From Hydrogenovibrio marinus (GTDB lineage Bacteria; Pseudomonadota; Gammaproteobacteria; Thiomicrospirales; Thiomicrospiraceae): DNA of 64,000 nucleotides. The stretch covers positions 62,001 to 126,000 of the forward strand of contig NZ_AP020335.1 in assembly GCF_013340845.1 (NCBI RefSeq), read 5' to 3'. This document shows positions 9,608-57,675 of the stretch, one piece after another (position 1 is the first letter of the stretch; each line of letters opens with the position of its first letter). A model generated the notes under the pieces. The model was not told the origin of the DNA and ran no database searches. It was given only the letters and a program-made list of their open reading frames with translations. The position numbers and the translations under genes were made by a program.

Positions 9608-11695
9608 ATGCAGCATTCCGACGTTTCAACCAATCCTCTGTTATCAATTGAAGGGCTACCTCAATTCAACGCGTTTCATGTGGAACACATCAAAGCGGCG
9701 GTAGAAACGCTGTTAAAGGAAAATCTGGCAACCGTTGAAGCACTGGTGAATAAGGCAGAGCCCCCAACCTGGCAGAATTTTGTCGAGCCTTTGGAGGCAT
9801 TGAGCAGTCGTTTGGAGCGTGTTTGGGGGCCGGTAAGCCATCTGGATGCGGTCAAGAACAACGATACTTGGCATGAGGCCTATAATGAGTGTTTGGCGCC
9901 TATCACTGATTATTATGCGCAGATGGGGCAAAACAAAGGGTTATTTGATAAATTCGAGACACTTGCCGAATCTGAAGAATACAAAGATTATTCCTTGGCG
10001 CAGAAGAAGGTAGTGGAAAACGCATTGCGCGATTTCCGTTTGTCTGGTATCGATTTGCCACCGGAAAACCAACAGGAATACAAAACCATTTCCCAGAAGC
10101 TTTCTCAGTTGAGCAGCCAGTTCAGCAACAATGTCTTAAAAAGTACACAGGCGTGGTCAAAACACATTACTGACGAATCCGATTTATCCGGTCTGCCTGA
10201 AACCTCAATGGGGCTATTGAAGCAGTTGGCGCAACAACGCAGTGAAAAAGATGGCAAGGACTATTCCGGTTGGGTGGTAACACTGGATTTTCCGTCTTAT
10301 TTGGCGGTGATGACCTATGCCGATAATCGCTCCTTGAGAGAAGAGGTTTATCGTGCTTTTGCGACGCGTGCTTCCGAGTTGGCGGATGATCCTCAATATG
10401 ACAATTCGGATTTGATTCGCGAGATTTTAGCGCTCAGACATCAAAAGTCTCAGTTGCTTGGTTTTGAGCATTTTGGTGAGTTGTCATTAGCGACCAAAAT
10501 GGCGGAGTCGAGTGAGCAGGTGACGGGGTTTATTCGTGATTTGGCAAAACAATCCAAACAACAAGCAGAAGTCGAGTTGGCGAAATTGAAGATTTTCGCA
10601 GAGGCGCTAGACCCCAACCTGGCAGATTTTCAGCCTTGGGATGTCAGCTATTATTCCGAGAAGTACAAGAACGAAACCCTGTCTTTATCGCAAGAAGCCC
10701 TTAGGCCTTATTTCCCGGTGGAAACCGTATTGAAAGGTCTGTTTGAAATCACCGAGACGTTATTCGGGGTAAAAGTACAGCTGAAAGCAGGGGTAGAAAC
10801 TTGGCACCCAGATGTTCGCTTCTATGAAGTGATGGAAGGGGGTCAGGTTGTTGCGGCTTTTTATTTGGACGTGTATGCGCGTGAAAACAAACGCGGGGGC
10901 GCTTGGATGGATTCGGCCATCAGTCGTTGGAAAACCCCTTCTGGAACGATTCAGACGCCGGTAGCTTATTTGGTGTGTAACTTTACGCCGCCAGTTGCTG
11001 ACAAACCAGCTTGTTTGACTCATGATGAGGTGACAACGCTTTTCCATGAATTTGGTCATGGTTTGCATCACATGCTAACGGAAATGAGTCACTTTGATAT
11101 TTCCGGTATTAACGGTGTGCCATGGGATGCTGTTGAGTTGCCATCTCAGTTTATGGAGAACTTCTGCTGGCATCGTGAAAGCTTGGATTTGATGACTTCG
11201 CATGTGGAAACGGGCGCGCATTTGCCGGATGACTTGTTGCATGCCTTGCAGAAAAGCCGCGGCTTCCAATCGGCAATGATGATGTTACGCCAGTTGGAGT
11301 TCAGTCTGTTCGATTTCATTGCGCATACCGATTATGACCCGAATGAGCCGAAGGAAATTCTGCAATTGGCGCAGGAAATTCGTGATGAAATTGCAGTCAT
11401 CCAACCACCGGAATATAACCGTTTTGCCCAGAGTTTCAGCCATATTTTCGCTGGTGGTTATGCGGCAGGTTATTTTAGTTACAAGTGGGCGGAAGTCCTG
11501 TCTTCAGATGCATTTGGTCTGTTCGAGGAACAGGGCATCTTGAATCCTAATGCGGGCGCCAAGTTCAAGAACACGATTTTGGCTGCCGGGGGTTCAGTTC
11601 ATCCGATGACGTTATTCAAGAATTTCCGCGGACGTGAGCCGAGTGTTGATGCCCTGTTAAGGCACTCGGGTATTGATACAGACAACGCAGCGTAG
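9608..11695 (+). CDS. prlC: Oligopeptidase A (M3 zinc metallopeptidase)
   Basis: This 695-aa cytoplasmic peptidase has the M3 zinc motif HEFGH at 480-484 (FHEFGHGLHHMLTEMSH), with the third ligand Glu expected ~25 residues on (near PSQFMENFCWH). Length and the N-terminal block (NPLLSIEGLPQFNAFHVEHI) match the PrlC/OpdA branch, which degrades signal-peptide fragments and short peptides. Two copies of the dispersed 20-bp motif lie inside this gene, at 9761 and 10611. They read PTWQNF and PNLADF in different frames, so the DNA rather than the protein sequence is conserved. It may be under the divergent TetR site. Confidence 0.95.
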   Translation: MQHSDVSTNPLLSIEGLPQFNAFHVEHIKAAVETLLKENLATVEALVNKAEPPTWQNFVEPLEALSSRLERVWGPVSHLDAVKNNDTWHEAYNECLAPITDYYAQMGQNKGLFDKFETLAESEEYKDYSLAQKKVVENALRDFRLSGIDLPPENQQEYKTISQKLSQLSSQFSNNVLKSTQAWSKHITDESDLSGLPETSMGLLKQLAQQRSEKDGKDYSGWVVTLDFPSYLAVMTYADNRSLREEVYRAFATRASELADDPQYDNSDLIREILALRHQKSQLLGFEHFGELSLATKMAESSEQVTGFIRDLAKQSKQQAEVELAKLKIFAEALDPNLADFQPWDVSYYSEKYKNETLSLSQEALRPYFPVETVLKGLFEITETLFGVKVQLKAGVETWHPDVRFYEVMEGGQVVAAFYLDVYARENKRGGAWMDSAISRWKTPSGTIQTPVAYLVCNFTPPVADKPACLTHDEVTTLFHEFGHGLHHMLTEMSHFDISGINGVPWDAVELPSQFMENFCWHRESLDLMTSHVETGAHLPDDLLHALQKSRGFQSAMMMLRQLEFSLFDFIAHTDYDPNEPKEILQLAQEIRDEIAVIQPPEYNRFAQSFSHIFAGGYAAGYFSYKWAEVLSSDAFGLFEEQGILNPNAGAKFKNTILAAGGSVHPMTLFKNFRGREPSVDALLRHSGIDTDNAA
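9761..9781 (+). repeat. Dispersed ~20-bp motif, copy 1 (one-base insertion)
   Basis: CCCCCAACCTGGCAGAATTT differs from the consensus ACCCCAACCTGGCAGATTTT by an extra A after GCAGA. It is inside prlC. Confidence 0.7.
10611..10630 (+). repeat. Dispersed ~20-bp motif, copy 2 (exact)
   Basis: ACCCCAACCTGGCAGATTTT, an exact consensus copy inside prlC, only 850 bp from copy 1. Confidence 0.85.
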
Positions 11696-16491: not shown

Positions 16492-16524
16492 CTTATCATC
16501 AGTATGTCTATGGAAGGAAAGAAC

Positions 16525-17109
16525 ATGATTCAAAAAACGCTGAATGCAAAGAACATTTTTGCATTGTTGTTTATCGTTTTAATTATTACCAAACTACACG
16601 CGTTTGAAGCTATCAAGCTCGACAGTCAGTTTATCGGGCAACCGATTATCATCAACTGGCCGTTGATTCTGACCGTCTTCATGATAGCCGCCGGAGCGAT
16701 TTTCTTGCGTAGAGGCTCCAATGATTGTTGGTTTATCGCGTTGAATTTTGTCGGTTTGATTTTGGTATCGATTGTGTTGGAATGGTACCAACCGGGGTTG
16801 GGTATCGGCATTTTCATGTTGATGCTCTCCACTGCTGTGGCAGAAGAATTGATCGTGCGTTACGCATTCTTCGAGTTGCTGTGGCCGCGTTTTAAACCCG
16901 CGATGATTGTCTTGTTAAGCGCGTTGCTGTTTATGGGTATTCACACCAATATCTACACGCAATTCGAGTCATCGTTGGCAGTCTTCCTTTTCGGATTGGT
17001 GTTGGGTGCTATCTATGCCAAATTCAAGCAAAAAGACCAGACGATTAAAGGGATTGCATTGGTTGCTTGGCTACACTTGGGTGCGTTGTTGTTGGATATT
17101 TATCTTTAA
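16525..17109 (+). CDS. CPBP (CAAX/Abi-type) intramembrane glutamic endopeptidase
   Basis: The ATG at 16525 follows GGAAGGAAAGAAC and is preferred to 16504; it gives 194 aa. About six hydrophobic spans are visible. The family motifs are EExxxR (EELIVRYAFFE), FxxxH (LFMGIHTN) and a last His (AWLHLGALLLD), so the active site looks complete. CPBP proteases cut membrane or prenylated peptides, and the bacterial roles are varied. It is 33 bp behind aas and may be co-transcribed. Substrate unknown. Confidence 0.85.
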   Translation: MIQKTLNAKNIFALLFIVLIITKLHAFEAIKLDSQFIGQPIIINWPLILTVFMIAAGAIFLRRGSNDCWFIALNFVGLILVSIVLEWYQPGLGIGIFMLMLSTAVAEELIVRYAFFELLWPRFKPAMIVLLSALLFMGIHTNIYTQFESSLAVFLFGLVLGAIYAKFKQKDQTIKGIALVAWLHLGALLLDIYL

Positions 17110-17110
17110 G

Positions 17111-17130
17111 AATATCTACCAGGTTGGGGT
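17111..17130 (-). repeat. Dispersed ~20-bp motif, copy 3 (minus, 2 mismatches)
   Basis: Reverse complement ACCCCAACCTGGTAGATATT matches 18 of 20 consensus positions. It faces copy 4 only 19 bp away. Confidence 0.7.
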
Positions 17131-17169
17131 GACGGCAATAAGAGCGTTGACCCCAACCTGGCAGATTTT
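17115..17169. terminator. Hairpin formed by two opposed motif copies between convergent genes
   Basis: Bases 17119-17130 pair perfectly with 17150-17161 (12 bp), and the stem continues past one mismatch (TCT/AGA). The loop is 19 nt. On the plus strand the right arm runs into GATTTTAT, a short T run. It lies between the CPBP gene and batD, which converge, so bidirectional termination is plausible. Confidence 0.55.
17150..17169 (+). repeat. Dispersed ~20-bp motif, copy 4 (exact)
   Basis: ACCCCAACCTGGCAGATTTT, exact, in the 76-bp intergenic gap 3' of the CPBP gene. Confidence 0.85.
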
Positions 17170-17185
17170 ATCGATTCTTACGTCC

Positions 17186-18922
17186 CTATTCAGGGTAAAT
17201 CGGATCCAGCTGTCGACCTTCCTGCTGTTTCGATTCTTTCGTTTGTTGATTTTCTGATGCTTTTAGTGCCTGACAGAAGCTCGGCAATAGGTTTTTGTCT
17301 AAAGCTTCCTGATGGAACAAATGTCCCTTCAAGCGATTCAACAATGAAGCGTTTTCGTTAATGGCGAGGAAGGCCTGTGCTTTAACTGGGAACTCCTGAG
17401 ACCATTGATTAAAAGCTTGATAGACACCTTTAGCATTTCCCTCCATACTCAGTGTACAGATGTGTTCCAGGCTTGGGTGCAGGCGTTGAGCGTTGGCGGA
17501 TTGTCCAGTGCCATCCATAGAAGTCATTAGATTCGGTCCTACAGAAACTTTCTTCTGGCGTTCACGCCAGTAAAGCACAGCGGTCATTAACCAGAGCAGT
17601 GCAAACGCAGCGGTGATTCCCTGCCAAAGCCGCGCAGTGCCTAAAACCTTATCGCTGGTTTCATGTGAAACTTCCTGATTAACCGGCTTGTTTTGTGGTG
17701 TCAGTGGCGTTAGATTGGTCCGCGGTTTCAGAGCCGGCAGTACATCCAGTGTTTTTGCTGGCAGAGTTGCCGTTTCCATTTTCTCAGTTTGCGTGTTCCA
17801 CCAATTGATGGTGATGGACGGTAGGGTGATTTTGCCTGCTTCCAAAGGTACGATTGCCATCTTGACGGTTTTAGCGGAGTTGATGCCTGAATCAACTTCC
17901 TGATCCGATAGTTTTGGGTCATCCGGATAGACATGGAAGCCCGCCTGGTCTTCCAAGCTGATGTCCGGCAACTGTGACGACATCAGGTTTTGTGCCTGCA
18001 AGCGGATGGTTCGCGTGATGGAGTCGCCCACTCGAAGTGAGTTAGGCATCTGCCAATCTTGCGTCAATGTCAGGTTTGGCGTTGGTAACCAGGTTTTGTC
18101 TTTAGGGTAATTTGCATTTTGCGGCATGATTGTCAGGGTAATCGGCTTGCTGTTGTTACGAATCATCTTGATGGCGCCGCGATATTGCAACCTACCGTCG
18201 AACTGCTCAGGCGGAATGGTCAAAGTGCCGCTTTTCTGAGGATAAAACGCCCAGCTCCATTCATAGACTTCATAGCGTTGACCGTTGATGTCTTTTTGAT
18301 AATTGACCTGATTTTTGAGTTGTTTGTTGATGGCATCTTTGAAAATAGGCGGACGAATGCTGCCATCGATAAAGCGCCCCAAATGGTAGTATTTCAGGGT
18401 GTAGATGACTTGTTGTTGAACGTAGGCTTTGTGGGTGCTGATGGAGGATTCCAAGAAGCTCACACCTTGTTTGCCCGCTTGCGTCATAGGCGAAACAGAG
18501 AGTTTGTAAGGCTGGCTGTCAATGCCATCCACGGTCAGAGGGGGAATCATCAGTTCCCCGATTTGTTTTGGCGTGATGCTGATGTCCCAACGTGTCAGCG
18601 CTTGGTAATTGCCGTTGACGATGCTGACATTCGTCGAGCGTTGGGTGCCCAAGACTTTGAACTGGTCTTTTAACGGCGACAAATCCAAGTCATCAAAGGT
18701 CTGGAAATTGGTTTGCACCACCAAATCCATTACATCGCCCATTTCCACTTTTTGGCGGTCTGTCGAGACGGAAAGGGTTTTGTCCGACGCATAGGCATTC
18801 AACGTGAACAGTGTCATTAAAACCGCGACGGCCAGTAACATTCTGGCAGCCATGTTCGAGTAAGGTTGCACAAATCTCATTGCCATCGTTTCACCATTTG
18901 TCTCATTATTGATTTTTACCAT
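17186..18922 (-). CDS. BatD-family protein (first Bat operon)
   Basis: This 578-aa protein has a signal peptide (LLAVAVLMTLFTLNAYA) and a long periplasmic region of beta-sandwich repeats. It opens with LSVSTDRQKVEMGDVMDLVV, the usual BatD 'oxygen tolerance' start. One C-terminal span (~435-457, AFALLWLMTAVLYW) leaves a cytoplasmic tail. BatD is thought to form part of a periplasm-facing VWA complex with BatA, BatB and BatC; its biochemical role is not established. The start overlaps the end of the VWA/TPR gene by 7 bp, so it is translationally coupled. Met residues at 13 and 15 are alternative starts. Confidence 0.85.
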   Translation of the reverse strand: MVKINNETNGETMAMRFVQPYSNMAARMLLAVAVLMTLFTLNAYASDKTLSVSTDRQKVEMGDVMDLVVQTNFQTFDDLDLSPLKDQFKVLGTQRSTNVSIVNGNYQALTRWDISITPKQIGELMIPPLTVDGIDSQPYKLSVSPMTQAGKQGVSFLESSISTHKAYVQQQVIYTLKYYHLGRFIDGSIRPPIFKDAINKQLKNQVNYQKDINGQRYEVYEWSWAFYPQKSGTLTIPPEQFDGRLQYRGAIKMIRNNSKPITLTIMPQNANYPKDKTWLPTPNLTLTQDWQMPNSLRVGDSITRTIRLQAQNLMSSQLPDISLEDQAGFHVYPDDPKLSDQEVDSGINSAKTVKMAIVPLEAGKITLPSITINWWNTQTEKMETATLPAKTLDVLPALKPRTNLTPLTPQNKPVNQEVSHETSDKVLGTARLWQGITAAFALLWLMTAVLYWRERQKKVSVGPNLMTSMDGTGQSANAQRLHPSLEHICTLSMEGNAKGVYQAFNQWSQEFPVKAQAFLAINENASLLNRLKGHLFHQEALDKNLLPSFCQALKASENQQTKESKQQEGRQLDPIYPE

Positions 18923-29726: not shown

Positions 29727-29748
29727 AAAAATCTGCCAGGTTGGGGGT
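29727..29748 (-). repeat. Dispersed ~20-bp motif, copy 6 (minus, exact core)
   Basis: On the minus strand it reads ACCCCCAACCTGGCAGATTT followed by TT. It directly abuts the mltC stop codon in the 121-bp gap before cmoA. Confidence 0.85.
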
Positions 29749-30935
29749 TAAGCTCTTAAGTATTTGGCTTTGTTGCGCGTGACTTTTTGTATGTAGTGTC
29801 TGGCTTCTTCGTATTTGAGGTTTTTCACCAAGTGTTGGTAGACCTGTTGGCTGGAAAGCTGGTTGATTTTCTCTACCGCGCGCCCTCGGTCATTGTCAAA
29901 AGCTGCCAGTACGTTTCCGCTTCCAGTGTTGTAGGCGGCAATCACACAATATTCACGTGACTTTTCTTGTTTGACGGAACCTAAATATTTGGTGTCGAGA
30001 ATATGTAAATATGCCGTACCCATCTCGATATTGTTATCCGGTTTGAACAGATAGTTTTTGCTTGGTGCGACATCTTTGTTGTGAATCAAACGGTAAGCGT
30101 CACGACCCGCAGTTTGTGGCACGATTTGCATCAACCCGTAAGCCGGAATGTGACTCATGGCGTAAGGGTTGAAAGCACTTTCGGTTTCGATAATCGCATA
30201 CACCAAAGCCGGTTCGATATCGAAGCGTTTGCTTTGACGACTGACTTGAGTGGAATATTTTTTCTGCTGATTTGCGTCATGGTCTTTAACCATTTCGAAA
30301 GTGACATAATGACGTGGTTTGCCATTATAGGTATCACTTTGATAGGCATGTGCCATCAGATAATCGGCATATCGATTGGCTCGCCATTGCGTGGTGACGG
30401 ATTGTTGATCCTGGTCGACAACCAAGCCATATAAAAATGGTTTTTTCCCAGTTTTCACCGATTTGTCGGATAGCAGATCAACGGTGCTCGGGTCGTCCGG
30501 CGTTAAAAGAGTGCTGATGATGGCGGCTTTGAGCGCCGTCTTCTCATCTTTATCGACAACCGTTTCCACGCGGATATGTCCGGTGGTGAAATTGATGATG
30601 GCTCGGCTTTTGTATTTGTCGGTGTACTTGACATATTCCTTTTGCGACGCGATTTTTTTGTCGCCCCAGGTTTTTGCCAGCTCTTTCACCATTTTGTTGA
30701 TTTGTTTGCGAACCAAGGAGTCGATTTGCGGAATACCCGTGACCGGAATCTGGGAAGTCAATGCACTAGGCACATCACCGTTGTACAGCTGTTCTGCCGA
30801 GGTGAAACTTCTGCGGACTTGTGTGGGCGTACAACCGGCAAGCACGCCGAGAACGCCTAAGGCCACGCCATTTTTAAGGAATTGTCTGCGGTTGAATGCA
30901 AGTGGATTGTCGGTCTGTTTTTCAGGCATTTCCAT
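29748..30935 (-). CDS. mltC: Membrane-bound lytic murein transglycosylase C-like lipoprotein
   Basis: This 395-aa protein has an N-terminal MltC-type DUF3393 domain (~45-215) and a C-terminal SLT lysozyme-like domain. Catalytic Glu is in YAIIETESAFNPYAMS, followed by AYGLMQIVPQTAGRDAY and VIAAYNTGSGNVLAAF. It cleaves peptidoglycan between MurNAc and GlcNAc, forming 1,6-anhydro ends. The signal sequence has a twin-arginine motif (NRRQFLKNG, Arg16-Arg17) and a lipobox LAGC with Cys35, predicting a Tat-exported lipoprotein; E. coli MltC lacks the RR motif. The gene starts 1 bp after the nuclease gene, in a cmoM-nuclease-mltC operon. Confidence 0.92.
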   Translation of the reverse strand: MEMPEKQTDNPLAFNRRQFLKNGVALGVLGVLAGCTPTQVRRSFTSAEQLYNGDVPSALTSQIPVTGIPQIDSLVRKQINKMVKELAKTWGDKKIASQKEYVKYTDKYKSRAIINFTTGHIRVETVVDKDEKTALKAAIISTLLTPDDPSTVDLLSDKSVKTGKKPFLYGLVVDQDQQSVTTQWRANRYADYLMAHAYQSDTYNGKPRHYVTFEMVKDHDANQQKKYSTQVSRQSKRFDIEPALVYAIIETESAFNPYAMSHIPAYGLMQIVPQTAGRDAYRLIHNKDVAPSKNYLFKPDNNIEMGTAYLHILDTKYLGSVKQEKSREYCVIAAYNTGSGNVLAAFDNDRGRAVEKINQLSSQQVYQHLVKNLKYEEARHYIQKVTRNKAKYLRA

Positions 30936-32758: not shown

Positions 32759-33262
32759 ATGAATTTAGAAAGCACTTTGAACACTTGGAACGGTCACCCG
32801 GACGATCTTAAGTCCATTTACCGCCAATTTAAAATCCAACCGGATTTTGTTATGCAGTTGTTGCCCTTGTTGAAACAAAAACAGCAACGCGGCGCCAGTG
32901 AACTATTGAAAATTTATCTTGGCAATCAAGGTCAGTTACCTGAAGGTTCAACCACCAGTATTTTGAAGAGTCTCTGTGTGACGCAAAGCTGGCAAACGCA
33001 GGAAAACCTGCTGGCATGTTTACCTTTCTTACATCCTTATCCAAAGCCGCAACAAGCCGCGCTGGCCCATTTTATTCACAACGCATTGCATTCGACACAT
33101 AAATCGGTCGCAGTGTTGGCAGAGCAAGCGGTAACAGAGTATGAAAAGGACTTTCCAGACCAACCTTTTGCACAGTTTTTGTCAGAAGAAGAAAAGGCAA
33201 TGGATGATGTTGAGGACAAAAAATCCAATGCTGACCAACAAATGAGCGCATCGCTTTTTTGA
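32759..33262 (+). CDS. Hypothetical protein, helical (167 aa)
   Basis: I do not recognise this family. The protein is mostly alpha-helical, with helix pairs resembling HEAT-type packing (PDFVMQLLPLLKQKQQRGAS, then KPQQAALAHFIHNALH) and an acidic tail (EEEKAMDDVEDKKSN). It has no signal peptide or membrane span, so it is cytoplasmic. It is divergent from cmoM across 155 bp and convergent with the MFS gene, with a copy of the dispersed motif between them. The ribosome site is weak. A scaffold or chaperone-like role would fit the fold guess but is not shown. Confidence 0.65.
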   Translation: MNLESTLNTWNGHPDDLKSIYRQFKIQPDFVMQLLPLLKQKQQRGASELLKIYLGNQGQLPEGSTTSILKSLCVTQSWQTQENLLACLPFLHPYPKPQQAALAHFIHNALHSTHKSVAVLAEQAVTEYEKDFPDQPFAQFLSEEEKAMDDVEDKKSNADQQMSASLF

Positions 33263-33281: not shown

Positions 33282-33302
33282 ACCCCAACCTGGCAGATTT
33301 TT
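33282..33302 (+). repeat. Dispersed ~20-bp motif, copy 7 (exact)
   Basis: ACCCCAACCTGGCAGATTTT plus one T. It sits in the 38-bp gap between convergent genes and overlaps the MFS stop codon. Confidence 0.85.
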
Positions 33303-34542
33303 ATGACTTTTTGGGGAGTGACAACTGTACGACTATTCCCGATAAAAGCATCGTCACACCGACAAACCAAAAAGGTAAGATAAGGTTTTGCGACCATTGC
33401 GTCATGATGCCCATTGCAAGCGCCCCAAATGCATAGCCTGAATCCCGCCAGAAACGGTAAATCCCAATTAAGCTCGCTCGATGTTGTGGCGGTGCAAAAT
33501 CGCCAACGGCGGCACCTAGATTTGGATACAGCATTGCCATTCCAAAGCCTATAAAGGCGGCTTCAAGAGTCCAGAGCGAAACGTCGGATGTATAAGGAAT
33601 GGCGAGAACGCCTAACCCACAGAAAACCATGCCCCAGACAATGAGGACTTTGCGGCCGATTTTGTCAGACAGTGGTCCGGTAATAAGTTGACTGGCACCC
33701 CAAACAATTCCATAAACGGCAATGATAGAACTTGCCTGAATAAGCGTTAGGTTTTGTGAAAGAAAGTAGACGGGAAGGAAAATCCAAACAATGGCATCGG
33801 TAAATTTTTCGACTAAGCCAGCTTGGTTTAAGGCAACTAGGGGCTTATTTTCGATGCTTGCAGTGCGAAAGAGTTGGCTCAGTGTTTGATGGCTGGTGTC
33901 CTGTCCTGAGGTTTGCGCTTGCTGCACGTGTAATTGTGCCCAGGGCAGGGTTTCGACGATAGTGAGTTTGGCCAGCAACAAACCTGACAAAATCACAATC
34001 AAACTGAAAATGAACAGACCCTCTTTTGCCCCCCAAAGCTCAACAAAATAGGCAGTAATCACACCTGCAATACCTACCGCAGCGTAGCCGGAGAATTCAT
34101 TAACGCCATTCACCAGACCTTTTTGGGTGGTTTTGGCCAAATCAAGTTTGCTGTTCAGCGCCATAGACCAACACATACCTTGATTGAAGCCGAGCAGAAT
34201 AGTTGCGCCAATAATCCAGTTCCAATTAGGCGAGTAAAGCAGCATAAAGGGAATTGGAATGGCGATTAACCAGCCCCAGATCAGTACTTGTTTTCGACCG
34301 TAATGCTCGCTCAATTTGCCTGCAAACAGGTTCATGATCGCCTTAACGATGCCGAAAGCGACAACAAAAGACGTGAGAAGGAAAAAGGCTTGATCAGCCA
34401 ACCCGAAGTCGGTTTCCGCTAATCCCGGTACGGCGACCCTTGTCATGCCAATGGTTAAACCTACGAGAAATATCTGGACAAGATGGAGTCCAAACTGATG
34501 TTTGTTGCTCAATATCCCATGGGAAATGTGTTGTTCGGTCAT
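33301..34542 (-). CDS. MFS transporter
   Basis: This 413-aa protein has 12 predicted spans. MFS loop motifs are visible: NLFAGKLSEHYGRKQVLIWG after spans 2-3 and TGPLSDKIGRKVLIVWGMVF in the second half. It is closest in style to drug or small-molecule efflux MFS proteins; the substrate is not readable. It diverges from an ArsR-rhodanese regulator across 164 bp containing a perfect palindrome, so it is probably controlled by that regulator. A sulfur compound or toxic anion as substrate would be an inference from that pairing. Confidence 0.85.
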   Translation of the reverse strand: MTEQHISHGILSNKHQFGLHLVQIFLVGLTIGMTRVAVPGLAETDFGLADQAFFLLTSFVVAFGIVKAIMNLFAGKLSEHYGRKQVLIWGWLIAIPIPFMLLYSPNWNWIIGATILLGFNQGMCWSMALNSKLDLAKTTQKGLVNGVNEFSGYAAVGIAGVITAYFVELWGAKEGLFIFSLIVILSGLLLAKLTIVETLPWAQLHVQQAQTSGQDTSHQTLSQLFRTASIENKPLVALNQAGLVEKFTDAIVWIFLPVYFLSQNLTLIQASSIIAVYGIVWGASQLITGPLSDKIGRKVLIVWGMVFCGLGVLAIPYTSDVSLWTLEAAFIGFGMAMLYPNLGAAVGDFAPPQHRASLIGIYRFWRDSGYAFGALAMGIMTQWSQNLILPFWFVGVTMLLSGIVVQLSLPKKS

Positions 34543-38206: not shown

Positions 38207-39326
38207 TGGCATGACTTGGACGGCGTTTTGGCAAGAGATCCCACAATGGTCGACTTGGATTTTCCAACATCCAACGGCTTTGGTGTTGGTTGGTTTAGCA
38301 CCCGTTTTGACATTAATTTTCTGGGCGGCATCTAAAAGCAAGGCGCGCCTATCCGGGTTAAGTGATTGGGATGAAGTCGCGGAAATGAAATCCATGTCTT
38401 TCCGTCATCCATTGATTGACCGCATGCATTGGGTTATGCAGCCACAAACCAAATCAAGTTTTTGGCGCTGGGCGTTGCAAGTTCTACGCTGGAGTATCTT
38501 GGCGCTATTGGCGATTGCTTTGGCAAGTCCGGTGAAAGAGGTGCCTTTGCCGCCTGAGCCGCAAACCAAAACCGTGCGGGATTTGGTGTTTGTGATTGAG
38601 TCTTCTGCCAGCTTTTTGTTGCCGGACTATGAAATGAATGGTCAACCGACTACGCGTATGGCAGTGGTGAAATCGGTACTTGATCAGTTTGTCTCCGGGC
38701 TGCAGGGCAACCGCTTCAGTTTTATTGTTTATGCTGAGCAGGCATTCACGTTAATGCCACTGACTACGGATGCCGTTACGGCGCGATTGATGCTCAAACG
38801 CCTGAGACCTTATCTAGCGGGTCGTACGGATGAAGGCGCTGGTGAAGCTTTGGGGTTAGGGCTTCAACAAACTGAAAACTCGACGAAAACCACACAAAAA
38901 CGCGTAGTGATCTTTATCTCGGATGGGCAATCTCGTGCTAGCCGGATTCCGTTGGATGATGCCATTACTTACGCGCAAGGTTTGAATGTGCCTATTTACA
39001 CCATCGGGGTCGGCGCGGGGAGTGCACAAGCTGATAAGCGCGCGTTTACCGGTCTGTTATATCAACCATTGAAAAGTGGTATGTTGCAGCATTTGGCGGC
39101 TGAAACCGGTGGACGTTATTATCAGGTAAACGGTGAAGCCAGCTTACAGAAAGTATTGCAGGCCATTGATCAAACTGAAGGTGCGCAACTGGAAACACCA
39201 CAGAAGAAAACCGCGAAAATAGAGCTCTATCCTTATTTTGTCGCATTAGCATTGATGCTATTTGTGCTCTATTTTGCATTGGTGCAACTGCTGGCGAAAC
39301 GCTTGCAGACAGAGGAGGCGGCATAA
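38196..39326 (+). CDS. VWA domain membrane protein, BatA-like (second Bat operon)
   Basis: This 376-aa protein starts at an ATG after AAGGAGA. It has two N-terminal spans (~27-45, ~85-107), a VWA domain and a C-terminal span (YFVALALMLFVLYFALVQLL). The MIDAS is altered: FVIESSASF has Glu in place of the first Asp of DxSxS, while the later FISDGQSRAS is kept. Metal binding may therefore be weaker or of a different kind than in the first-operon partner (DLSGSM). It overlaps the next gene by 1 bp. Confidence 0.85.
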   Translation: MVSDGMTWTAFWQEIPQWSTWIFQHPTALVLVGLAPVLTLIFWAASKSKARLSGLSDWDEVAEMKSMSFRHPLIDRMHWVMQPQTKSSFWRWALQVLRWSILALLAIALASPVKEVPLPPEPQTKTVRDLVFVIESSASFLLPDYEMNGQPTTRMAVVKSVLDQFVSGLQGNRFSFIVYAEQAFTLMPLTTDAVTARLMLKRLRPYLAGRTDEGAGEALGLGLQQTENSTKTTQKRVVIFISDGQSRASRIPLDDAITYAQGLNVPIYTIGVGAGSAQADKRAFTGLLYQPLKSGMLQHLAAETGGRYYQVNGEASLQKVLQAIDQTEGAQLETPQKKTAKIELYPYFVALALMLFVLYFALVQLLAKRLQTEEAA

Positions 39327-41458
39327 TGCAAAGTTGGCTGTCTTCTATAGAAAATCACTTAATACGCTTCTTCAATGAGATGTGGACACTCGTTTGGCCT
39401 GACGGTTGGGAATGGCGTGATGCGCAGACCCTCTGGTTTGTGTTGGTACCAATCATTTGGTGGCTGGTTGCTTATGTGATTAAAAAACGTCAAACCGCAC
39501 ACTATGCTGATGCCGAGTTACTGCCTTGGGTAAAAGCCGATGCTGCTGCACTTAATGGAATGGGCTCTTCTGCGAATCTGGCTGATGGCGACGGCAGGAG
39601 TACGACCCCCCAACCTGGCAGATTTTTCTCGCCTTACCCCTTCGGGCGGCGAGTTCTTTGTTTATGGCATTTTATTAAGCGTGGTTTGAGCAAACTTGTA
39701 TCGCCAATGGCATTCTTATCTTTTGCCTGGATCGCCATGATTATTTCTCTTGCAGGACCAAGAAGTGCGATTCCCGCGCCAAATGAATCCTCTCGTGCTG
39801 GCGTCGATATTTTGATTGGTCTGGATGTATCCCGTTCTATGTTGGTTCAAGATATGGGGGGTAATCGTTTTATTTTCAGCCGTGCTTTGATTGAATCCTT
39901 ATTGAACCGTTTGGAGCCAAATGATCGTGTCGGGTTGATGGTGTATGCTGGAAAACCGCATTTGGTGACGCCGTTGGCATTTGACAGAGGGCTATTCAAA
40001 CATTATTTGGGCTTGGTACGTCCGGGCATGTTACCGACCAGAGGGTCGCAGATTTATCCAGCGCTTGATTTTGGATTGAAACATCTCAAACAAACGGCAG
40101 GCAAGGCGCAAGTATTGGTGATGTTGACCAATGGTGAACCTGTCGAGTATCAGCCGCAAACGCTGCCGGAAGATTTGGCAAAGAGAAGCGATAAAACGGC
40201 AGACAATGATGTTTCAGGCTCTAAAGTGATTTTGGTCGGTGTTGGTAAAAACGCAGCAAGCCGTATTCCTGAGTTTACCGACCCAACCGGATATTTACAC
40301 GCTTTTGGCAAGTTGGTGACGTCTCGCTTGGAAGCGGACTTTTTGAAAAAACTTGCAGGACAAGTGGCGGGACAGTATCTGCAAGCAACGGATCAGGGCG
40401 CATTTTTAGAACAACTCCTGAGTGCGGTAACAGAGCAGGCGCAAAAACGTACTATTGTGTCTTCAACGCCGATTTGGCAAGACCATGCTTGGCCATTTGA
40501 GTTGGCGGCCTTTATTTTACTGGTGTTGGCGTTCTATCCAGTTAAATTGGGATCACAAGTTTCCGGTTCAGTTAGTGTGCTGGCGGTTGGATTGCTTTCT
40601 GCAAGTCTGCTTGGGTTGCCAACGCCTTCTCAGGCGCAAGATGATGCGGAAGCTTCATCAATGAACTTAAGTGCCAGCCAACAAGTCGCCAAACAACAGC
40701 AGGCATACCAAGCCTTCCAATCGAATGATTTTGATTTGTCTGAACAACTTTATGATGGATTGAACCAATATGAGGGTTGGTTTGGCGCTGGAGACGCTGC
40801 TTATCGCGCCGCTGATTATGAGTCGGCAGTGTTGTACTTTACGCAAGCTGCTGTTGGCGGGCGAAACGATAAAGAGCGTGCTCAGGCATTGTTTAATTTA
40901 GGGAATACCTTTTTCAAATCCAACTTATTTCCGCAAACGATAGAAGCTTATGAACAAGCCTTGGTCTATCTGCCAGATTATGACAAAGCCAAACATAATC
41001 TGGAGTTGGCGAAAAAAATGCAACGTCAGCAAAGAAAAGGTAAACAGCAAAACGACGAGAAGGGCAACGGAAGCGGTAGGGGCGATCAGTCTCGTGATGC
41101 GGAAGGCAGCTTTTATGGCGGACAAAAGCCAAATAATGAGCCGGGTAAAGGTGTGTCTGGTGATTCTCCAGAGGGAGAAAAGCAGGCGAAAGAATTTGTT
41201 TTGCCGGATGAAGAAGACCGTACCGATTTCCGTCTAAAACCATCTGAGAAGCTAGAAGCTACTGACAAGGCTGAAGAAACCGCGAATGCGATTTTAGATC
41301 AGCAAAAACGCAGAAGAACCATTGAGAAATTTGAGCAAAAAATGCAACAAGTTCAAGATAAACAGTCTTTGTTATTACAACACCTTTTTGAGCGGGAAGA
41401 AGGCTTTCAGGCTGAGCAAGAGCAGGCACATGATCTGCCAGGAGTGAAGCCATGGTAA
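39326..41458 (+). CDS. VWA plus TPR protein, BatB-BatC fusion (second Bat operon)
   Basis: This 710-aa membrane protein has N-terminal spans, a VWA domain with intact MIDAS (ILIGLDVSRSMLVQD), a middle span, TPR units (YDGLNQYEGWFGAGDAAYRA and ALFNLGNTFFKSNLFPQTIE) and a charged, probably disordered C-terminus. Compared with the first-operon homologue it has an additional ~45-residue stretch before the second span, near residues 85-130. The dispersed motif at 39606 lies inside that stretch (TTPQPGRFFSPYPFGRR), suggesting a later insertion or expansion. It overlaps the BatD-like gene by 7 bp. Confidence 0.87.
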   Translation: MQSWLSSIENHLIRFFNEMWTLVWPDGWEWRDAQTLWFVLVPIIWWLVAYVIKKRQTAHYADAELLPWVKADAAALNGMGSSANLADGDGRSTTPQPGRFFSPYPFGRRVLCLWHFIKRGLSKLVSPMAFLSFAWIAMIISLAGPRSAIPAPNESSRAGVDILIGLDVSRSMLVQDMGGNRFIFSRALIESLLNRLEPNDRVGLMVYAGKPHLVTPLAFDRGLFKHYLGLVRPGMLPTRGSQIYPALDFGLKHLKQTAGKAQVLVMLTNGEPVEYQPQTLPEDLAKRSDKTADNDVSGSKVILVGVGKNAASRIPEFTDPTGYLHAFGKLVTSRLEADFLKKLAGQVAGQYLQATDQGAFLEQLLSAVTEQAQKRTIVSSTPIWQDHAWPFELAAFILLVLAFYPVKLGSQVSGSVSVLAVGLLSASLLGLPTPSQAQDDAEASSMNLSASQQVAKQQQAYQAFQSNDFDLSEQLYDGLNQYEGWFGAGDAAYRAADYESAVLYFTQAAVGGRNDKERAQALFNLGNTFFKSNLFPQTIEAYEQALVYLPDYDKAKHNLELAKKMQRQQRKGKQQNDEKGNGSGRGDQSRDAEGSFYGGQKPNNEPGKGVSGDSPEGEKQAKEFVLPDEEDRTDFRLKPSEKLEATDKAEETANAILDQQKRRRTIEKFEQKMQQVQDKQSLLLQHLFEREEGFQAEQEQAHDLPGVKPW
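39606..39627 (+). repeat. Dispersed ~20-bp motif, copy 8 (exact core)
   Basis: CCCCCCAACCTGGCAGATTT then TT. It lies inside the VWA/TPR gene, read as PQPGRF. Confidence 0.85.
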
Positions 41459-44854: not shown

Positions 44855-45088
44855 AACAGCATTCCTTTTGCGTATCGGAATTGTGCGTTCCTCGCACATT
44901 TCTTTCAGTATGAAACTCAATTATAAGAAAAAAATACAAAAAGTCTAGTTTCTTCAATTAGTTAGTGATTCTTAAAAAGCAAGTGGTAGAAAAACGGGGG
45001 AATATTGTCCCTAGGTACAATAGATTTTGGTTGACCAAGGTTCTATAGTGCTTTTACTGAGTAAAAAAGCATGAGCTGGAGAAGTCTA

Positions 45089-48000
45089 ATGGCTGCAAGT
45101 AATTCTGTTGTAATCGGTCGAGTTGGAGAAATTACCGGGGTAGTTTACATCAAACTTCCTTCTGGAGAGTTGGTACAACTTAAGGAAGGTATGGTTGTCC
45201 ATGCTAACGATGTTATCGTGACGGCTGATGGAGGATCCATTCTAGTTTACTTGGCAGATGGCTCAGTCTTCACTTTGGGACAAAATTCAGTTGCTCGTTT
45301 GGATGACGATATTATGCCAAGAGCAGCTGCTGAAGATTTGCAGGCAAAGAACCAGGATGACGTTAAAGATTTGGCTCAGAAGGTTCTTTCTGGCCATGCC
45401 GGTGACTTGGATGCTACTGCAGCAGGGGAAACCGGGCAGCCATTATCTTCTTCTTCTCAGTCACCGGATGCTATTCAAGCTGATAGATCACAAGGTAATG
45501 TTACCAGTGGATTTGATACTGGAAATTCAGATGGTCAGGGTACTGGACAGCCTGATAATCAAACAGGTAATGGTGACAGCCAGAACAGCTTTTTTGCAAC
45601 TCAGCAAGCAGTTTTCTCAGTTTCCCTTGATATTGACAGAATCACTTCAGATAGCTTGGTTAATGCGCAAGAAGCCAACGGTACGATTAATGTGACCGGT
45701 ACGGTTACTGGGCTGAATTTAGACCACGGTACAGTCACGCTAACAGTTAACGGAAAAGATTATTCAGGAACTTACGGTTCGGACGGGAAATATTCTATTG
45801 CGGTTCCTGGAACCGATTTTGTTAATGATTCTGACCAAATCATCCAAGCAACCACTACGGGCTATAACCAGCAAGGAGATCAAGCTACCAGTTCTTCTAC
45901 TGAGTTTTACTTGATTGATACAAGTGCCGGTCGTGTGTATGTTGATCCAATTACGGGTGACAACCTTGTTGCGGGTAATGAAGATCAAAACGTCACAATC
46001 AGCGGTAAAACCACTTCAATTGCAGCAGGTCAAACGGTTACGGTTGACGTTCTTGATGAGGCTGGAGCTACAAAATACACTGGCTCTGCAACTGTAGGTG
46101 TTGACGGAAAATGGTCAATTTCAGGCGTTGATATGAGTGGTTGGCCTGATGAAGCAAATTACCATGTGGTTGCTAATGCGGTAGATTCCTCTGGTAACCC
46201 TGCAATCAAAGGTGAGCAGGACTTTTCAACGCGTGTTACTCAAAGCGATTCTTTAACCATTCAAGAAAATACGATTGGTACGGGGAATGTTTTGTCCAAC
46301 GACAGCAATCCAAATCATACTTTACAAGTAACCAACTTCACTATTGCCGGTGACACACAAACTTATTCTGCTGGACAGACAGCAACCATCTCTGGAATAG
46401 GTCAGATTGTTGTACAGGCGGATGGTAGTTACCAATTTACGCCTGAGCATAACTGGGATGGTACTGTTCCAAAGCTTACCTATAACACGAATATCAATGA
46501 GCATGATACCTTGGATATTTCCGTTGAACCTGTTGGAAGTAACCACACCGGCACGGTGACGATTGACCCTGTGACGGCTGATAACGTAATTAATGCAACT
46601 GAAAGTGGTAGCACAGTAGCCGTAACCGGTACTGCTGCTGGTGGAGACATTAAAGCGGGCGATACTGTTACGTTGGTTATTAATGGAACACAGTACACCA
46701 CAACCGTGGGTTCAGATGGGAAATGGAGTGCAAATGTTGCCGGCTCTGATTTGGCGGTTGACTCGGATAAAACATTTACAGCCGTTGTGTCCTCTAAGGA
46801 CAGCTCTGGCGGAACGGTTATTAGTAATGCGGATCACACTTACAGTGTCGATACCACAGCGGACAAAGGAACGGTCACGATCAATGACGTGACTTCAGAC
46901 AACGTGATCAATGCCGCGGAGAGTGGACAAACCATCGCAGTGACAGGAACCGCGACCGGTGGCGACATCAGCAGCGGAGATACGCTAACGATGACCATCA
47001 ACGGCAAAGACTACAGCACCACCGTCAACAGTGACGGCAGCTGGAGCGTCGATGTAGCCGGCTCCGACCTGGCCGCGGATGCCGACAAAGGCTTCACAGC
47101 GAGTGTTGCGTCAAGCGATGCCGCGGGCAACACAGTGACCACCACAGCGGATCACACTTACAGTGTCGATACCACAGCGGACAAAGGAACGGTCACGATC
47201 AATGACGTGACTTCAGACAACGTGATCAATGCCGCGGAGAGTGGACAAACCATCGCAGTGACAGGAACCGCGACCGGTGGCGACATCAGCAGCGGAGATA
47301 CGCTAACGATGACCATCAACGGCAAAGACTACAGCACCACCGTCAACAGTGACGGCAGCTGGAGCGTCGATGTAGCCGGCTCCGACCTGGCCGCGGATGC
47401 CGACAAAGGCTTCACAGCGAGTGTTGCGTCAAGCGATGCCGCGGGCAACACAGTGACCACCACAGCGGATCACACTTACAGTGTCGATACCACAGCGGAC
47501 AAAGGAACGGTCACGATCAATGACGTGACTTCAGACAACGTGATCAATGCCGCGGAGAGTGGACAAACCATCGCAGTGACAGGAACCGCGACCGGTGGCG
47601 ACATCAGCAGCGGAGATACGCTAACGATGACCATCAACGGCAAAGACTACAGCACCACCGTCAACAGTGACGGCAGCTGGAGCGTCGATGTAGCCGGCTC
47701 CGACCTGGCCGCGGATGCCGACAAAGGCTTCACAGCGAGTGTTGCGTCAAGCGATGCCGCGGGCAACACAGTGACCACCACAGCGGATCACACTTACAGT
47801 GTCGATACCACAGCGGACAAAGGAACGGTCACGATCAATGACGTGACTTCAGACAACGTGATCAATGCCGCGGAGAGTGGACAAACCATCGCAGTGACAG
47901 GAACCGCGACCGGTGGCGACATCAGCAGCGGAGATACGCTAACGATGACCATCAACGGCAAAGACTACAGCACCACCGTCAACAGTGACGGCAGCTGGAG

Positions 48001-56269: not shown

Positions 56270-56325
56270 GTCTCTGTTCGTACTTCCTATGGATGGAGTA
56301 ATGATTGACGCTTAAAAGGCATGAA

Positions 56326-57675
56326 ATGTCCAGTAATCCATTTGAAAACCAAGTAGATATTACAAAATCCAAGCTATTACAAAACGATAGCTTGGTTTCA
56401 TCCTATAAGGTTAAGCAAGTGATTGAAGATGACAGTGTGTCTCGATGGGTTCGAGTTCTGCATGACATCAGCAATCATTATGCAATTAAGCGAGAAAAAG
56501 ACCTGCTGATTTATTTGAATCAGTTCAAAGATGACTTTGTTCGCTTTGACGAAATTCGTAAGGTTCAATTCAATTATCTGCAATTTTTCGATTTTGTAGG
56601 TAAGCGGACGCTGCAGGAGAAAGTTAAAAAAACAGGGCCTCTATCGGAAAAGCAAGCTCGTCACCTTCTTGAAAATGTCCTATCCGGGTTAGAAAAACTA
56701 CATGGTGTCGGCTTTGTTCATAACAATATTCGCCCAGAGTCTATCCTAGTCGGGAAAGATCATTATTACCTTTTTTCGATGGATCATGCGATTCCAATGC
56801 TGACCAGCTATGAATCTGAGTTGCTGGTGGGCGATCAACGCTATACGGCGCCGGAGCGTATGAATGGCCAAGCTTCAGAAGCTAGTGATGTCTATGCACT
56901 GGGCTGCATGCTGTATTACGCATTGTCAGGAAAGCATATTTATCGCTTAAAGCCGAATCAAGATCGCTATCAACAGCTTTATGCTCATGCATTTCATTCC
57001 ATGTCCAAAGAAAACAGCTTGCCTTATTTTTGGCGACAACTGGTTATTTGGATGACGCAGAAACAGCCGGAAAAGAGACCCAACCTGGCAGATTTAAAGC
57101 AATGGCTGGTAGATCAAGTTGTACCTAAGTTTATTCGTGATGAAGTCATCGGGCATAATCGAAAATCATCTGAAACGCCTTTAGAAGACTTAGCCAATCA
57201 GCATTGTTTGTTTGCACAATTTAAAAAGGCGAATGAATATGAAGCAGAAGGCAACCTTGATTCTGCATTTAACCTTTATGAAAATGGTGCATTCAGAGAA
57301 TATTCTCGTGCAGAGAACAATTTAGGTCTTATGTACGAAAAAGGCGCGCCTATTAAGCAGGACTACTTTAAAGCCATGAATTACTATCATATGGCTTATC
57401 AAAAAGGAAATCCCTATGCGGCTTATAACTTAGGACGTATGTTTGAAAAAGGTCTGGGAACCAGTGTTGATTTGAAGAAAGCGTTTAAACTCTTCCAGTT
57501 TTCAGCATTAAGAGGGCATCGTCCTGCACAACATAAGATAGGTTCTTTTTATGCGGAAGGGCAAGGTATTCCAAAGAATTTAATTCAAGCGCGTTTTTGG
57601 TTCGGGCTAGCGGCCAGATATGGTTGCCTAGAGTCAGAAAACAGTATCAAGAAGCTATTAACGGCTAGCCTTTGA
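56326..57675 (+). CDS. Pseudokinase domain plus Sel1 repeats
   Basis: The ATG at 56326 (AAGG before it) gives 449 aa; a TTG at 56305 behind GGATGGAG is an alternative. Residues ~25-265 are a Ser/Thr-kinase-like fold. Lys55 of the ATP pocket (YAIKRE) and the later YTAPERMNG and SDVYALGCMLYYALSGK blocks are kept. The catalytic HRDxKxxN is HNNIRPES (132-139), so Asp is Asn, and DFG is SMD (151-153). It is therefore predicted to be a pseudokinase. Three Sel1 repeats follow (~330-440: AENNLGLMYEKGAPIKQDYF, AAYNLGRMFEKGLGTSVDLK). There is no signal or membrane span. It starts 56 bp after the adhesin and is probably co-transcribed, so a scaffold for adhesin control or export is plausible. A copy of the dispersed motif is inside at 57078. 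Confidence 0.85.
   Translation: MSSNPFENQVDITKSKLLQNDSLVSSYKVKQVIEDDSVSRWVRVLHDISNHYAIKREKDLLIYLNQFKDDFVRFDEIRKVQFNYLQFFDFVGKRTLQEKVKKTGPLSEKQARHLLENVLSGLEKLHGVGFVHNNIRPESILVGKDHYYLFSMDHAIPMLTSYESELLVGDQRYTAPERMNGQASEASDVYALGCMLYYALSGKHIYRLKPNQDRYQQLYAHAFHSMSKENSLPYFWRQLVIWMTQKQPEKRPNLADLKQWLVDQVVPKFIRDEVIGHNRKSSETPLEDLANQHCLFAQFKKANEYEAEGNLDSAFNLYENGAFREYSRAENNLGLMYEKGAPIKQDYFKAMNYYHMAYQKGNPYAAYNLGRMFEKGLGTSVDLKKAFKLFQFSALRGHRPAQHKIGSFYAEGQGIPKNLIQARFWFGLAARYGCLESENSIKKLLTASL
57078..57095 (+). repeat. Dispersed ~20-bp motif, copy 9 (exact core)
   Basis: ACCCAACCTGGCAGATTT, inside the pseudokinase gene, read as PNLADL (compare PNLADF in prlC). Confidence 0.8.

What the first reader, a model, noticed from the sequence alone, without database searches (positions are those of the whole stretch)
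17111..17169. Two motif copies face each other and form a hairpin between convergent genes
Copies at 17111 (minus) and 17150 (plus) are inverted, 19 bp apart. They form a 12-bp perfect stem that continues past one mismatch, placed exactly between the ends of the CPBP and batD genes. Paired uptake sequences used as terminators are known in Neisseria and Haemophilus, so this strengthens the uptake-sequence reading.
Basis: partly seen in the sequence, partly recalled or inferred. Interest (0 to 1): 0.55.

Follow-up and report, generated by a model that had tools for sequence, protein, structure and literature searches.

The report
Paired uptake-like motif forming a terminator
In a group of sulphur-oxidising bacteria a short DNA 'word' is scattered hundreds of times through each genome, has species-specific spellings that changed together at many sites, and is often used in mirror-image pairs at the ends of genes, which makes it look like a DNA-uptake watermark in a third bacterial family.

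Summary
The hairpin is real: arms 17119-17130 and 17150-17161 form a 12-bp perfect stem with a 19-nt loop, then one mismatch and 4 more pairs, in the 76-bp gap between a CPBP (Rce1-like) gene and batD. It is one of 45 closely spaced motif pairs in this 2.49-Mb Hydrogenovibrio genome. All 45 are inverted, and none lies between divergent genes. The unit is asymmetric, CCCCAACCTGGYAGATTTT (311 copies of its 13-mer core). A near relative uses the same motif. A third genome uses CCCAGCCTGGYAGATTTT: 17 of 19 aligned places carry the same A-to-G change, while flanks are 57% identical. Seven other genomes of the genus, and 26 of 62 in the family, instead carry the palindrome CCAGGCCTGG at 200 or more copies; further palindromic dialects exist. 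Most sampled genomes share a CCTGG-N4-TTTT half-site. Concerted, dialect-like change implies a trans-acting sequence reader. Best explanation: an uptake-sequence system of the DUS/USS type in a third bacterial family, with pairs reused as terminators. DNA uptake and the receptor are untested. A link to C5-cytosine methylase, a terminator-only element, a mobile repeat and Chi-like sites all fit worse. In the papers I saw, only Neisseriaceae and Pasteurellaceae are credited with uptake sequences.

The parts
17114..17130 (-). minus-strand motif copy (ACCCCAACCTGGTAGAT) forming the left arm; core stem 17119-17130
   Evidence: sequence; (1 mismatch to ACCCCAACCTGGCAGA at 17115-17130); conserved in G012, and in G007 with A->G
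17131..17149 (.). 19-nt loop / spacer, not conserved between relatives
   Evidence: in G012 and G007 the spacer differs while both arms are kept
17150..17169 (+). plus-strand motif copy ACCCCAACCTGGCAGATTTT forming the right arm and the T-tract (17166-17169)
   Evidence: exact match 17150-17165
16504..17109 (+). CPBP / Rce1-like gene ending 4 nt before the left arm
   Evidence: PF02517, E 6.7e-11
17186..18922 (-). batD gene, convergent; its stop codon lies 19 nt beyond the paired region
   Evidence: PF13584, E 8.8e-28
9761..9776 (+). motif copy inside a Peptidase_M3 gene (9608-11695); not kept in G007
10611..10626 (+). motif copy inside the same Peptidase_M3 gene; G007 has the A->G dialect at this place
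29732..29747 (-). single motif copy just beyond the 3' end of an MltC-like transglycosylase gene (29748-30935, -)
33282..33297 (+). single motif copy in the 38-bp gap between convergent ORFs 32759-33262 (+) and 33301-34542 (-, MFS)
39607..39622 (+). motif copy inside a VWA/TPR protein gene (39326-41458)
57077..57092 (+). motif copy inside a protein kinase/Sel1 gene (56305-57675); the aligned place in G005 carries the palindrome CCAGGCCTGG

Best explanation
The finding is an inverted pair of a dispersed ~18-bp motif, CCC(C)AACCTGGYAGATTTT. Shown: the motif is present hundreds of times, inside genes and between them; relatives carry dialect versions (CCCAGCCTGGYAGATTTT; palindromes CCAGGCCTGG, ACCGGCCGGT and others); in one relative the same single base differs at nearly every aligned place; close pairs are inverted and sit at gene 3' ends. 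Inferred with good support: the pair at 17114-17169 folds in RNA and ends the CPBP transcript, and less well the batD transcript, as an intrinsic terminator. Inferred with moderate support: the motif is kept as an uptake sequence. A sequence-specific DNA receptor on the competence pilus binds it, DNA carrying it is preferentially imported through ComEC and recombined, and so copies spread and persist wherever tolerated. When the receptor's specificity shifted, copies were rewritten to the new dialect. Terminator use is a secondary co-option, as in Neisseriaceae and Pasteurellaceae.
For: Abundance: 256 copies of the 11-mer, 311 of CCAACCTGGYAGA here and 357 in G012, against 0-4 in the other 60 family genomes. 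Dispersal: 23 of 75 sampled copies in CDS; 129 of 201 palindrome copies in CDS in six relatives; 1-6 copies in every one of 20 sampled 20-kb stretches, variance 2.3 against mean 3.4. Pairs: 45 here, all inverted; 38 in G007, all inverted (one with a variant arm), and 46 in G012, of which the 37 listed are all inverted. Dialects. Concerted switch: 17 of 19 G000 copies aligned to G007 read CCAGCCTGG; reverse, 17 of 21 G007 copies read CCAACCTGG in G000; motif columns without base 4 are 91.6% identical, flanks 57.2%, base 4 is 1 of 19. Shared half-site CCTGG-N4-TTTT: G000 71/75, G007 40/43, G005 38/58, G009 62/100, G014 40/74, G011 16/28, G061 9/14. ComEC in 56 of 62 family genomes, including all 11 of the genus. 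The same set of traits is described for DUS/USS in PMC12616744 (Introduction read), and for DUS inverted pairs in PMC3630211 (passages).
Against: No uptake data and no receptor. A FimT/GspH search (PF12019) hit only 3 of 62 genomes, all with 1-3 palindrome copies. ComEC is also present in the sampled genomes without an enriched motif (G029, G030, G042, G051, G028), and its domain also occurs in 10 of 14 control genomes, so it does not discriminate. The palindromic dialects are unlike known DUS/USS and resemble HIP1. 69% of sampled copies here (52 of 75) are intergenic, so part of the maintenance could be terminator function. The T-tract half-site is weak in G006 (25/90) and G008 (13/50), where an A-tract is commoner. 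Only 8 of 155 palindrome copy-by-genome comparisons show the asymmetric motif at the same place, some of them loosely aligned. 20 of 45 pairs have the T-tract inside the hairpin.
Confidence: 0.6

Rival explanations
1. A HIP1-like highly iterated palindrome tied to DNA methylation or mismatch repair; the asymmetric form in this clade is a decayed derivative. Hairpins are incidental.
For: Seven genomes of the genus and 26 of 62 in the family carry a palindrome, CCAGGCCTGG, at 200 or more copies; the core contains CCWGG and GGCC, typical methylase targets (recalled). HIP1 co-occurs with methyltransferases in cyanobacteria (PMC4390886, passages).
Against: No C5-cytosine methylase (PF00145) match in 18 of the 26 palindrome-rich genomes, nor in G000 or G007; it is present in several motif-poor ones. 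No methylase site is shared by all dialects: CCCAACCTGG lacks GGCC and ACCGGCCGGT lacks CCWGG (from the sequences). The G000-type motif is not palindromic. m4C and m6A methylases were not tested, and 8 palindrome-rich genomes plus G012 do have a PF00145 match.
Confidence: 0.15
2. Simply a family of intrinsic terminators with a shared sequence, kept because it terminates transcription.
For: 52 of 75 sampled copies are intergenic although only 9.8% of sequence is; placed copies split 21 convergent, 25 tandem, 3 divergent; pairs avoid divergent gaps; 8 of 11 single tandem copies have their T-tail along transcription.
Against: 23 of 75 copies here and 129 of 201 palindromes in relatives lie inside genes. 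A terminator needs pairing, not a fixed sequence, yet 17 of 19 copies share one dialect base and singles switched too. 20 of 45 pairs have no T-tract outside the stem.
Confidence: 0.1
3. Binding site of an intracellular chromosome protein (recombination, segregation, nucleoid or repair), with dialects following that protein.
For: Palindromic form with flanking A/T tracts suits a dimeric DNA-binding protein (inference from logos); dispersal is even; a trans-acting reader is implied.
Against: No marked replication-strand skew: 36 forward and 27 reverse of 63, halves not different (Fisher p 0.62), best of all origins 43/63; 41 of 67 sampled copies on one replication strand by GC skew, far from typical Chi or KOPS bias (recalled). 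A change of reader would need hundreds of sites rewritten without an evident copying mechanism, which uptake plus recombination supplies.
Confidence: 0.1
4. A mobile REP/MITE-type repeat that spread by transposition.
For: Hundreds of near-identical short copies, many in inverted pairs, mostly intergenic.
Against: Nothing beyond the ~18-bp motif is shared between pairs: spacers and flanks differ and flanking columns of 75 aligned copies carry little information. The same base differs in place at 17 of 19 sites.
Confidence: 0.03

Closest known systems
DNA uptake sequence (DUS) of Neisseriaceae, read by ComP
   Same: Hundreds of copies or more, copies inside and between genes, inverted pairs at gene ends, clade-specific dialects with a conserved part (PMC3630211 passages; PMC12616744 Introduction). 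31% of sampled copies here lie in ORFs; 35% is quoted for N. gonorrhoeae (PMC1939737 passage).
   Different: Unrelated sequence and family; a palindromic form exists in most of the genus; ComP was not searched for and uptake is untested.
Uptake signal sequence (USS) of Pasteurellaceae (receptor predicted: PpdA/ComN)
   Same: Core plus a downstream T-rich part at fixed spacing; inverted pairs as terminators; about 65% of copies in ORFs in H. influenzae against 129 of 201 in the palindromic relatives.
   Different: Different core; the T-tract begins 4 bases after the core and there is one tract, not two; no receptor known.
HIP1 (GCGATCGC) of cyanobacteria
   Same: Highly iterated palindrome with dialect-like replacements in some genomes (PMC4390886 passages).
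   Different: Asymmetric in the window's species; no C5 methylase in G000, G007 and 18 of 26 palindrome-rich genomes; strong bias to gene ends in G000.

Membership tests
DUS/USS-type uptake sequence | Very many copies, far above chance, in the species' own genome | tested here: met
   256 copies of an 11-mer with control 0; 311 of the 13-mer
DUS/USS-type uptake sequence | Copies dispersed, also inside coding genes | tested here: met
   23 of 75 in CDS in a 464-kb sample; 129 of 201 in six relatives (simple ORF caller)
DUS/USS-type uptake sequence | Frequent inverted pairs at gene ends | tested here: met
   45 of 45 inverted, 25 convergent + 18 tandem + 2 in ORF + 0 divergent; G007 38, G012 46 (37 of the 46 listed)
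DUS/USS-type uptake sequence | Clade-specific dialects around a conserved core | tested here: met
   no single core is common to every dialect (ACCGGCCGGT lacks CCTGG)
DUS/USS-type uptake sequence | Competence machinery in the host | tested here: inconclusive
   ComEC domain found in G000 (open frame 888 aa) and 56 of 62 family genomes; DprA, ComEA, pilus genes not searched
DUS/USS-type uptake sequence | Sequence-specific receptor (minor pilin) | tested here: inconclusive
   PF12019 (GspH/FimT) hit 3 of 62 genomes, none motif-rich; ComP/PpdA-like proteins not searched
DUS/USS-type uptake sequence | Motif raises DNA uptake/transformation | not testable with these tools
   needs an experiment
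Intrinsic (Rho-independent) terminator | G+C-rich hairpin followed by a U-tract, after a stop codon | tested here: met
   + strand: stem then UUUU at 17166-17169, hairpin 4 nt past the stop; - strand tail AUAUUCUU is weak; 20 of 45 pairs genome-wide lack an outer T-tract
Intrinsic (Rho-independent) terminator | RNA 3' end at the site | not testable with these tools
   no RNA data
HIP1-type palindrome | Perfect palindrome | tested here: not met
   CCCCAACCTGGYAGATTTT is asymmetric in G000, G012, G007; relatives do have a palindrome
HIP1-type palindrome | Cognate DNA methyltransferase | tested here: inconclusive
   PF00145 absent from G000, G007 and 18 of 26 palindrome-rich genomes; m4C/m6A enzymes not searched
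Chi / KOPS | Strong orientation bias along replication | tested here: not met
   36 vs 27 overall, Fisher p 0.62 between halves, at most 43/63 for any origin

The most novel reading that the evidence does not exclude
A third family of bacteria (the Hydrogenovibrio family) has its own DNA-uptake sequence system. Its usual form is a palindrome like cyanobacterial HIP1; in one clade it became an asymmetric DUS-like word, and the dialect change was copied through many fixed sites. That would link HIP-type palindromes and uptake sequences as one class of 'self' watermarks.
Probability: 0.5. Interest if true: 0.85.

Novelty: new variant of a known kind. Interest (0 to 1): 0.72.

Why it matters
[quoted passage not shown] A third family, living free in sulphidic water rather than on animals, would show that such self-recognition evolves repeatedly. 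Its three-step dialect series, CCAGGCCTGG, CCCAGCCTGG, CCCAACCTGG, would allow receptor-motif co-evolution to be tested, and may bear on the open function of HIP1 palindromes.

Tried and rejected
Chi/KOPS-like signal: rejected on orientation. Rfam RNA element: no match in 16500-17800. C5 methylase link: does not follow the motif. FimT as receptor: PF12019 hit only 3 genomes, all motif-poor; the model may be insensitive here. Direct comparison of palindromic and asymmetric sites at the same places: mostly no shared site (4 of 88 forward, 8 of 155 reverse copy-by-genome comparisons; overlapping loci not merged, so a few are counted twice), so the palindrome-to-asymmetric descent rests mainly on the shared half-site and on a few places such as 57080. 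The order-level search returned the same 62 genomes as the family and added nothing. Literature: searches found no uptake or iterated-palindrome motif described for this genus or family. 'thiomicrospira' with 'uptake sequence' gave 0 papers. For CCAGGCCTGG 49 papers matched and only 20 were listed, none visibly relevant. Subscription papers are mostly not held.

Correction made on checking: an earlier notebook entry says 8 of 11 genus genomes are palindrome-rich; one search shows 7 of 11.

Full report
What is there. The window is bases 62001-126000 of a single-contig genome of 2,491,293 bp. The hairpin is as described: stem 17119-17130 / 17150-17161, 19-nt loop, one mismatch, 4 further pairs, in the 76-bp gap between a CPBP (Rce1-like) gene and batD. 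It folds far better than shuffles on both strands (z -5.4 and -8.1). On the + strand UUUU overlaps the end of the paired region; on the - strand the tail is weaker (AUAUUCUU) and overlaps the CPBP stop codon.

Which organism. Relative G012 has a 390,514-bp contig with batD at the same coordinates as NZ_WBJR01000002.1, titled Hydrogenovibrio sp. JE_KL2. The search tool labels G012 'same genus', so I infer that the window is from Hydrogenovibrio (Gammaproteobacteria, Piscirickettsiaceae in NCBI). The species is not known.

The motif genome-wide. CCCCAACCTGG occurs 141 + 115 = 256 times with 0 for the reversed control; ACCCCAACCTGGCAGA 63 times; CCAACCTGGYAGA 311 times. In a sample of 464 kb (window plus twenty 20-kb stretches) there are 75 copies of CCAACCTGG, consensus CCCCAACCTGGCAGATTTT, which extrapolates to about 400 per genome (inference). 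By a simple ORF caller 23 are in CDS and 52 intergenic, although intergenic sequence is 9.8%. Of the 49 placed intergenic copies 21 are convergent, 25 tandem and 3 divergent. All 20 stretches have 1-6 copies.

Pairs. The pattern CCARSYTGG-N3..33-CCARSYTGG would find direct and inverted pairs alike; it found 45 places, all inverted. With about 400 random copies, about 3 close neighbours would be expected, and if orientation were random the chance of no direct pair among 45 is 3e-14. Twenty-five have the GG side inside and the T-tract outside, as here; twenty have the T-tract inside. Contexts: 25 convergent, 18 tandem, 2 within an ORF by my caller, none divergent. G007 has 38 pairs, all inverted (one with a variant arm). 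G012 has 46, of which the 37 listed are inverted.

Dialects; the 13-mer is at 311 (G000) and 357 (G012) copies, but 0-4 in the 60 other genomes of the family. K-mer counts on sampled stretches show why: G007 uses CCCAGCCTGGCAGATTTT, while G005, G006, G008, G009, G011 and G014 use the palindrome CCAGGCCTGG. Whole-genome counts of that palindrome: 7 of 11 genus genomes have 367-677, G000 has 1, and G007, G012 and G013 have 0; in the family 26 of 62 have 200 or more, with reversed controls of 0-2. Other dialects: ACCGGCCGGT in G026 (39 in 100 kb); CAGGCCTG with other flanks in G023, G046 and G047 (25, 20 and 21 in 60 kb each). No enriched motif was evident in the sampled parts of G029, G030, G051, G042 and G028.

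Concerted change. Aligning G000 to G007, 19 motif copies are covered: 17 read CCAGCCTGG, one CCACCCTGG, one is lost. The other way, 17 of 21 G007 copies read CCAACCTGG in G000. Against G012, 13 of 14 are identical. Motif columns other than base 4 are 91.6% identical between G000 and G007, flanks 57.2%, base 4 only 1 of 19; against G012, 97.0% and 79.3%. The finding's own hairpin shows it: both arms carry the change in G007, so pairing is kept, while the spacer is different. This is selection by something that reads the sequence in trans; single copies inside genes (10614) changed too.

Common half-site. Three or more T in the four bases starting 4 after CCTGG: G000 71/75, G007 40/43, G005 38/58, G009 62/100, G014 40/74, G011 16/28, G061 9/14. 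It is weak in G006 (25/90) and G008 (13/50), which favour A-tracts. At window 57080 the aligned place in G005 carries the palindrome; in general palindromic and asymmetric sites are not at the same places (8 of 155 comparisons).

Mechanism. The shown facts require a sequence-specific reader and a way to keep and rewrite many copies. Natural transformation with a sequence-selective receptor supplies both, and DUS/USS show the same traits: dialects, copies in ORFs, inverted pairs used as terminators (PMC12616744 abstract and Introduction; PMC3630211, PMC1939737 and PMC13020248 passages). ComEC is present in 56 of 62 family genomes, G000 included, but it does not follow the motif and so is only permissive. 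No receptor was found. I put the uptake reading at 0.6.

Rivals. Methylation-linked HIP: no PF00145 match in G000, G007 and 18 of 26 palindrome-rich genomes; 8 such genomes and G012 do have one. Terminator-only: contradicted by copies in genes and by one-base dialects. Chi-like: no strong strand bias. Mobile repeat: nothing beyond the motif is shared.

Verdict. Observation confirmed; terminator reading likely; uptake reading well supported by analogy and comparative evidence but not demonstrated. Classed as a new variant of a known kind, because of the new family and the palindromic form.

Noticed in passing
window 46829-52248: 17 perfect 318-bp tandem repeats (100% matches) inside an 11-kb ORF (45071-56269), probably a large repetitive surface protein.
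   Followed up: no
G040:C21:94460, G042:C11:278814, G051:C1:2198569 (L209-L211): The only GspH/FimT (PF12019) matches in 62 family genomes are in three genomes with only 1-3 copies of CCAGGCCTGG; possibly a different, non-selective DNA receptor, or chance.
   Followed up: no
G007:C1:937685 and G000:C1:1094834: G007 keeps 4 copies of the G000-type 13-mer; one lies 360 bp before its ComEC domain match, and G000 has a copy 333 bp before its own ComEC match. Possibly the same site left unswitched inside comEC; not aligned.
   Followed up: no
G016:C6 samples (L203-L205): A different dispersed element, AAAAGTCGGGGACCCC-like 12-mers in 6 separate places in 60 kb, in a genus without CCAGGCCTGG.
   Followed up: no
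G013 (same genus): Has 0 copies of CCAGGCCTGG and of CCAACCTGGYAGA but has ComEC; may have another dialect or have lost the system.
   Followed up: partly
G051:C1 samples (L144-L148): About 97-100 copies of 10-12-mers such as CTCGCTGCCG confined to a few 2-kb bins, i.e. a clustered repeat unrelated to the motif.
   Followed up: no
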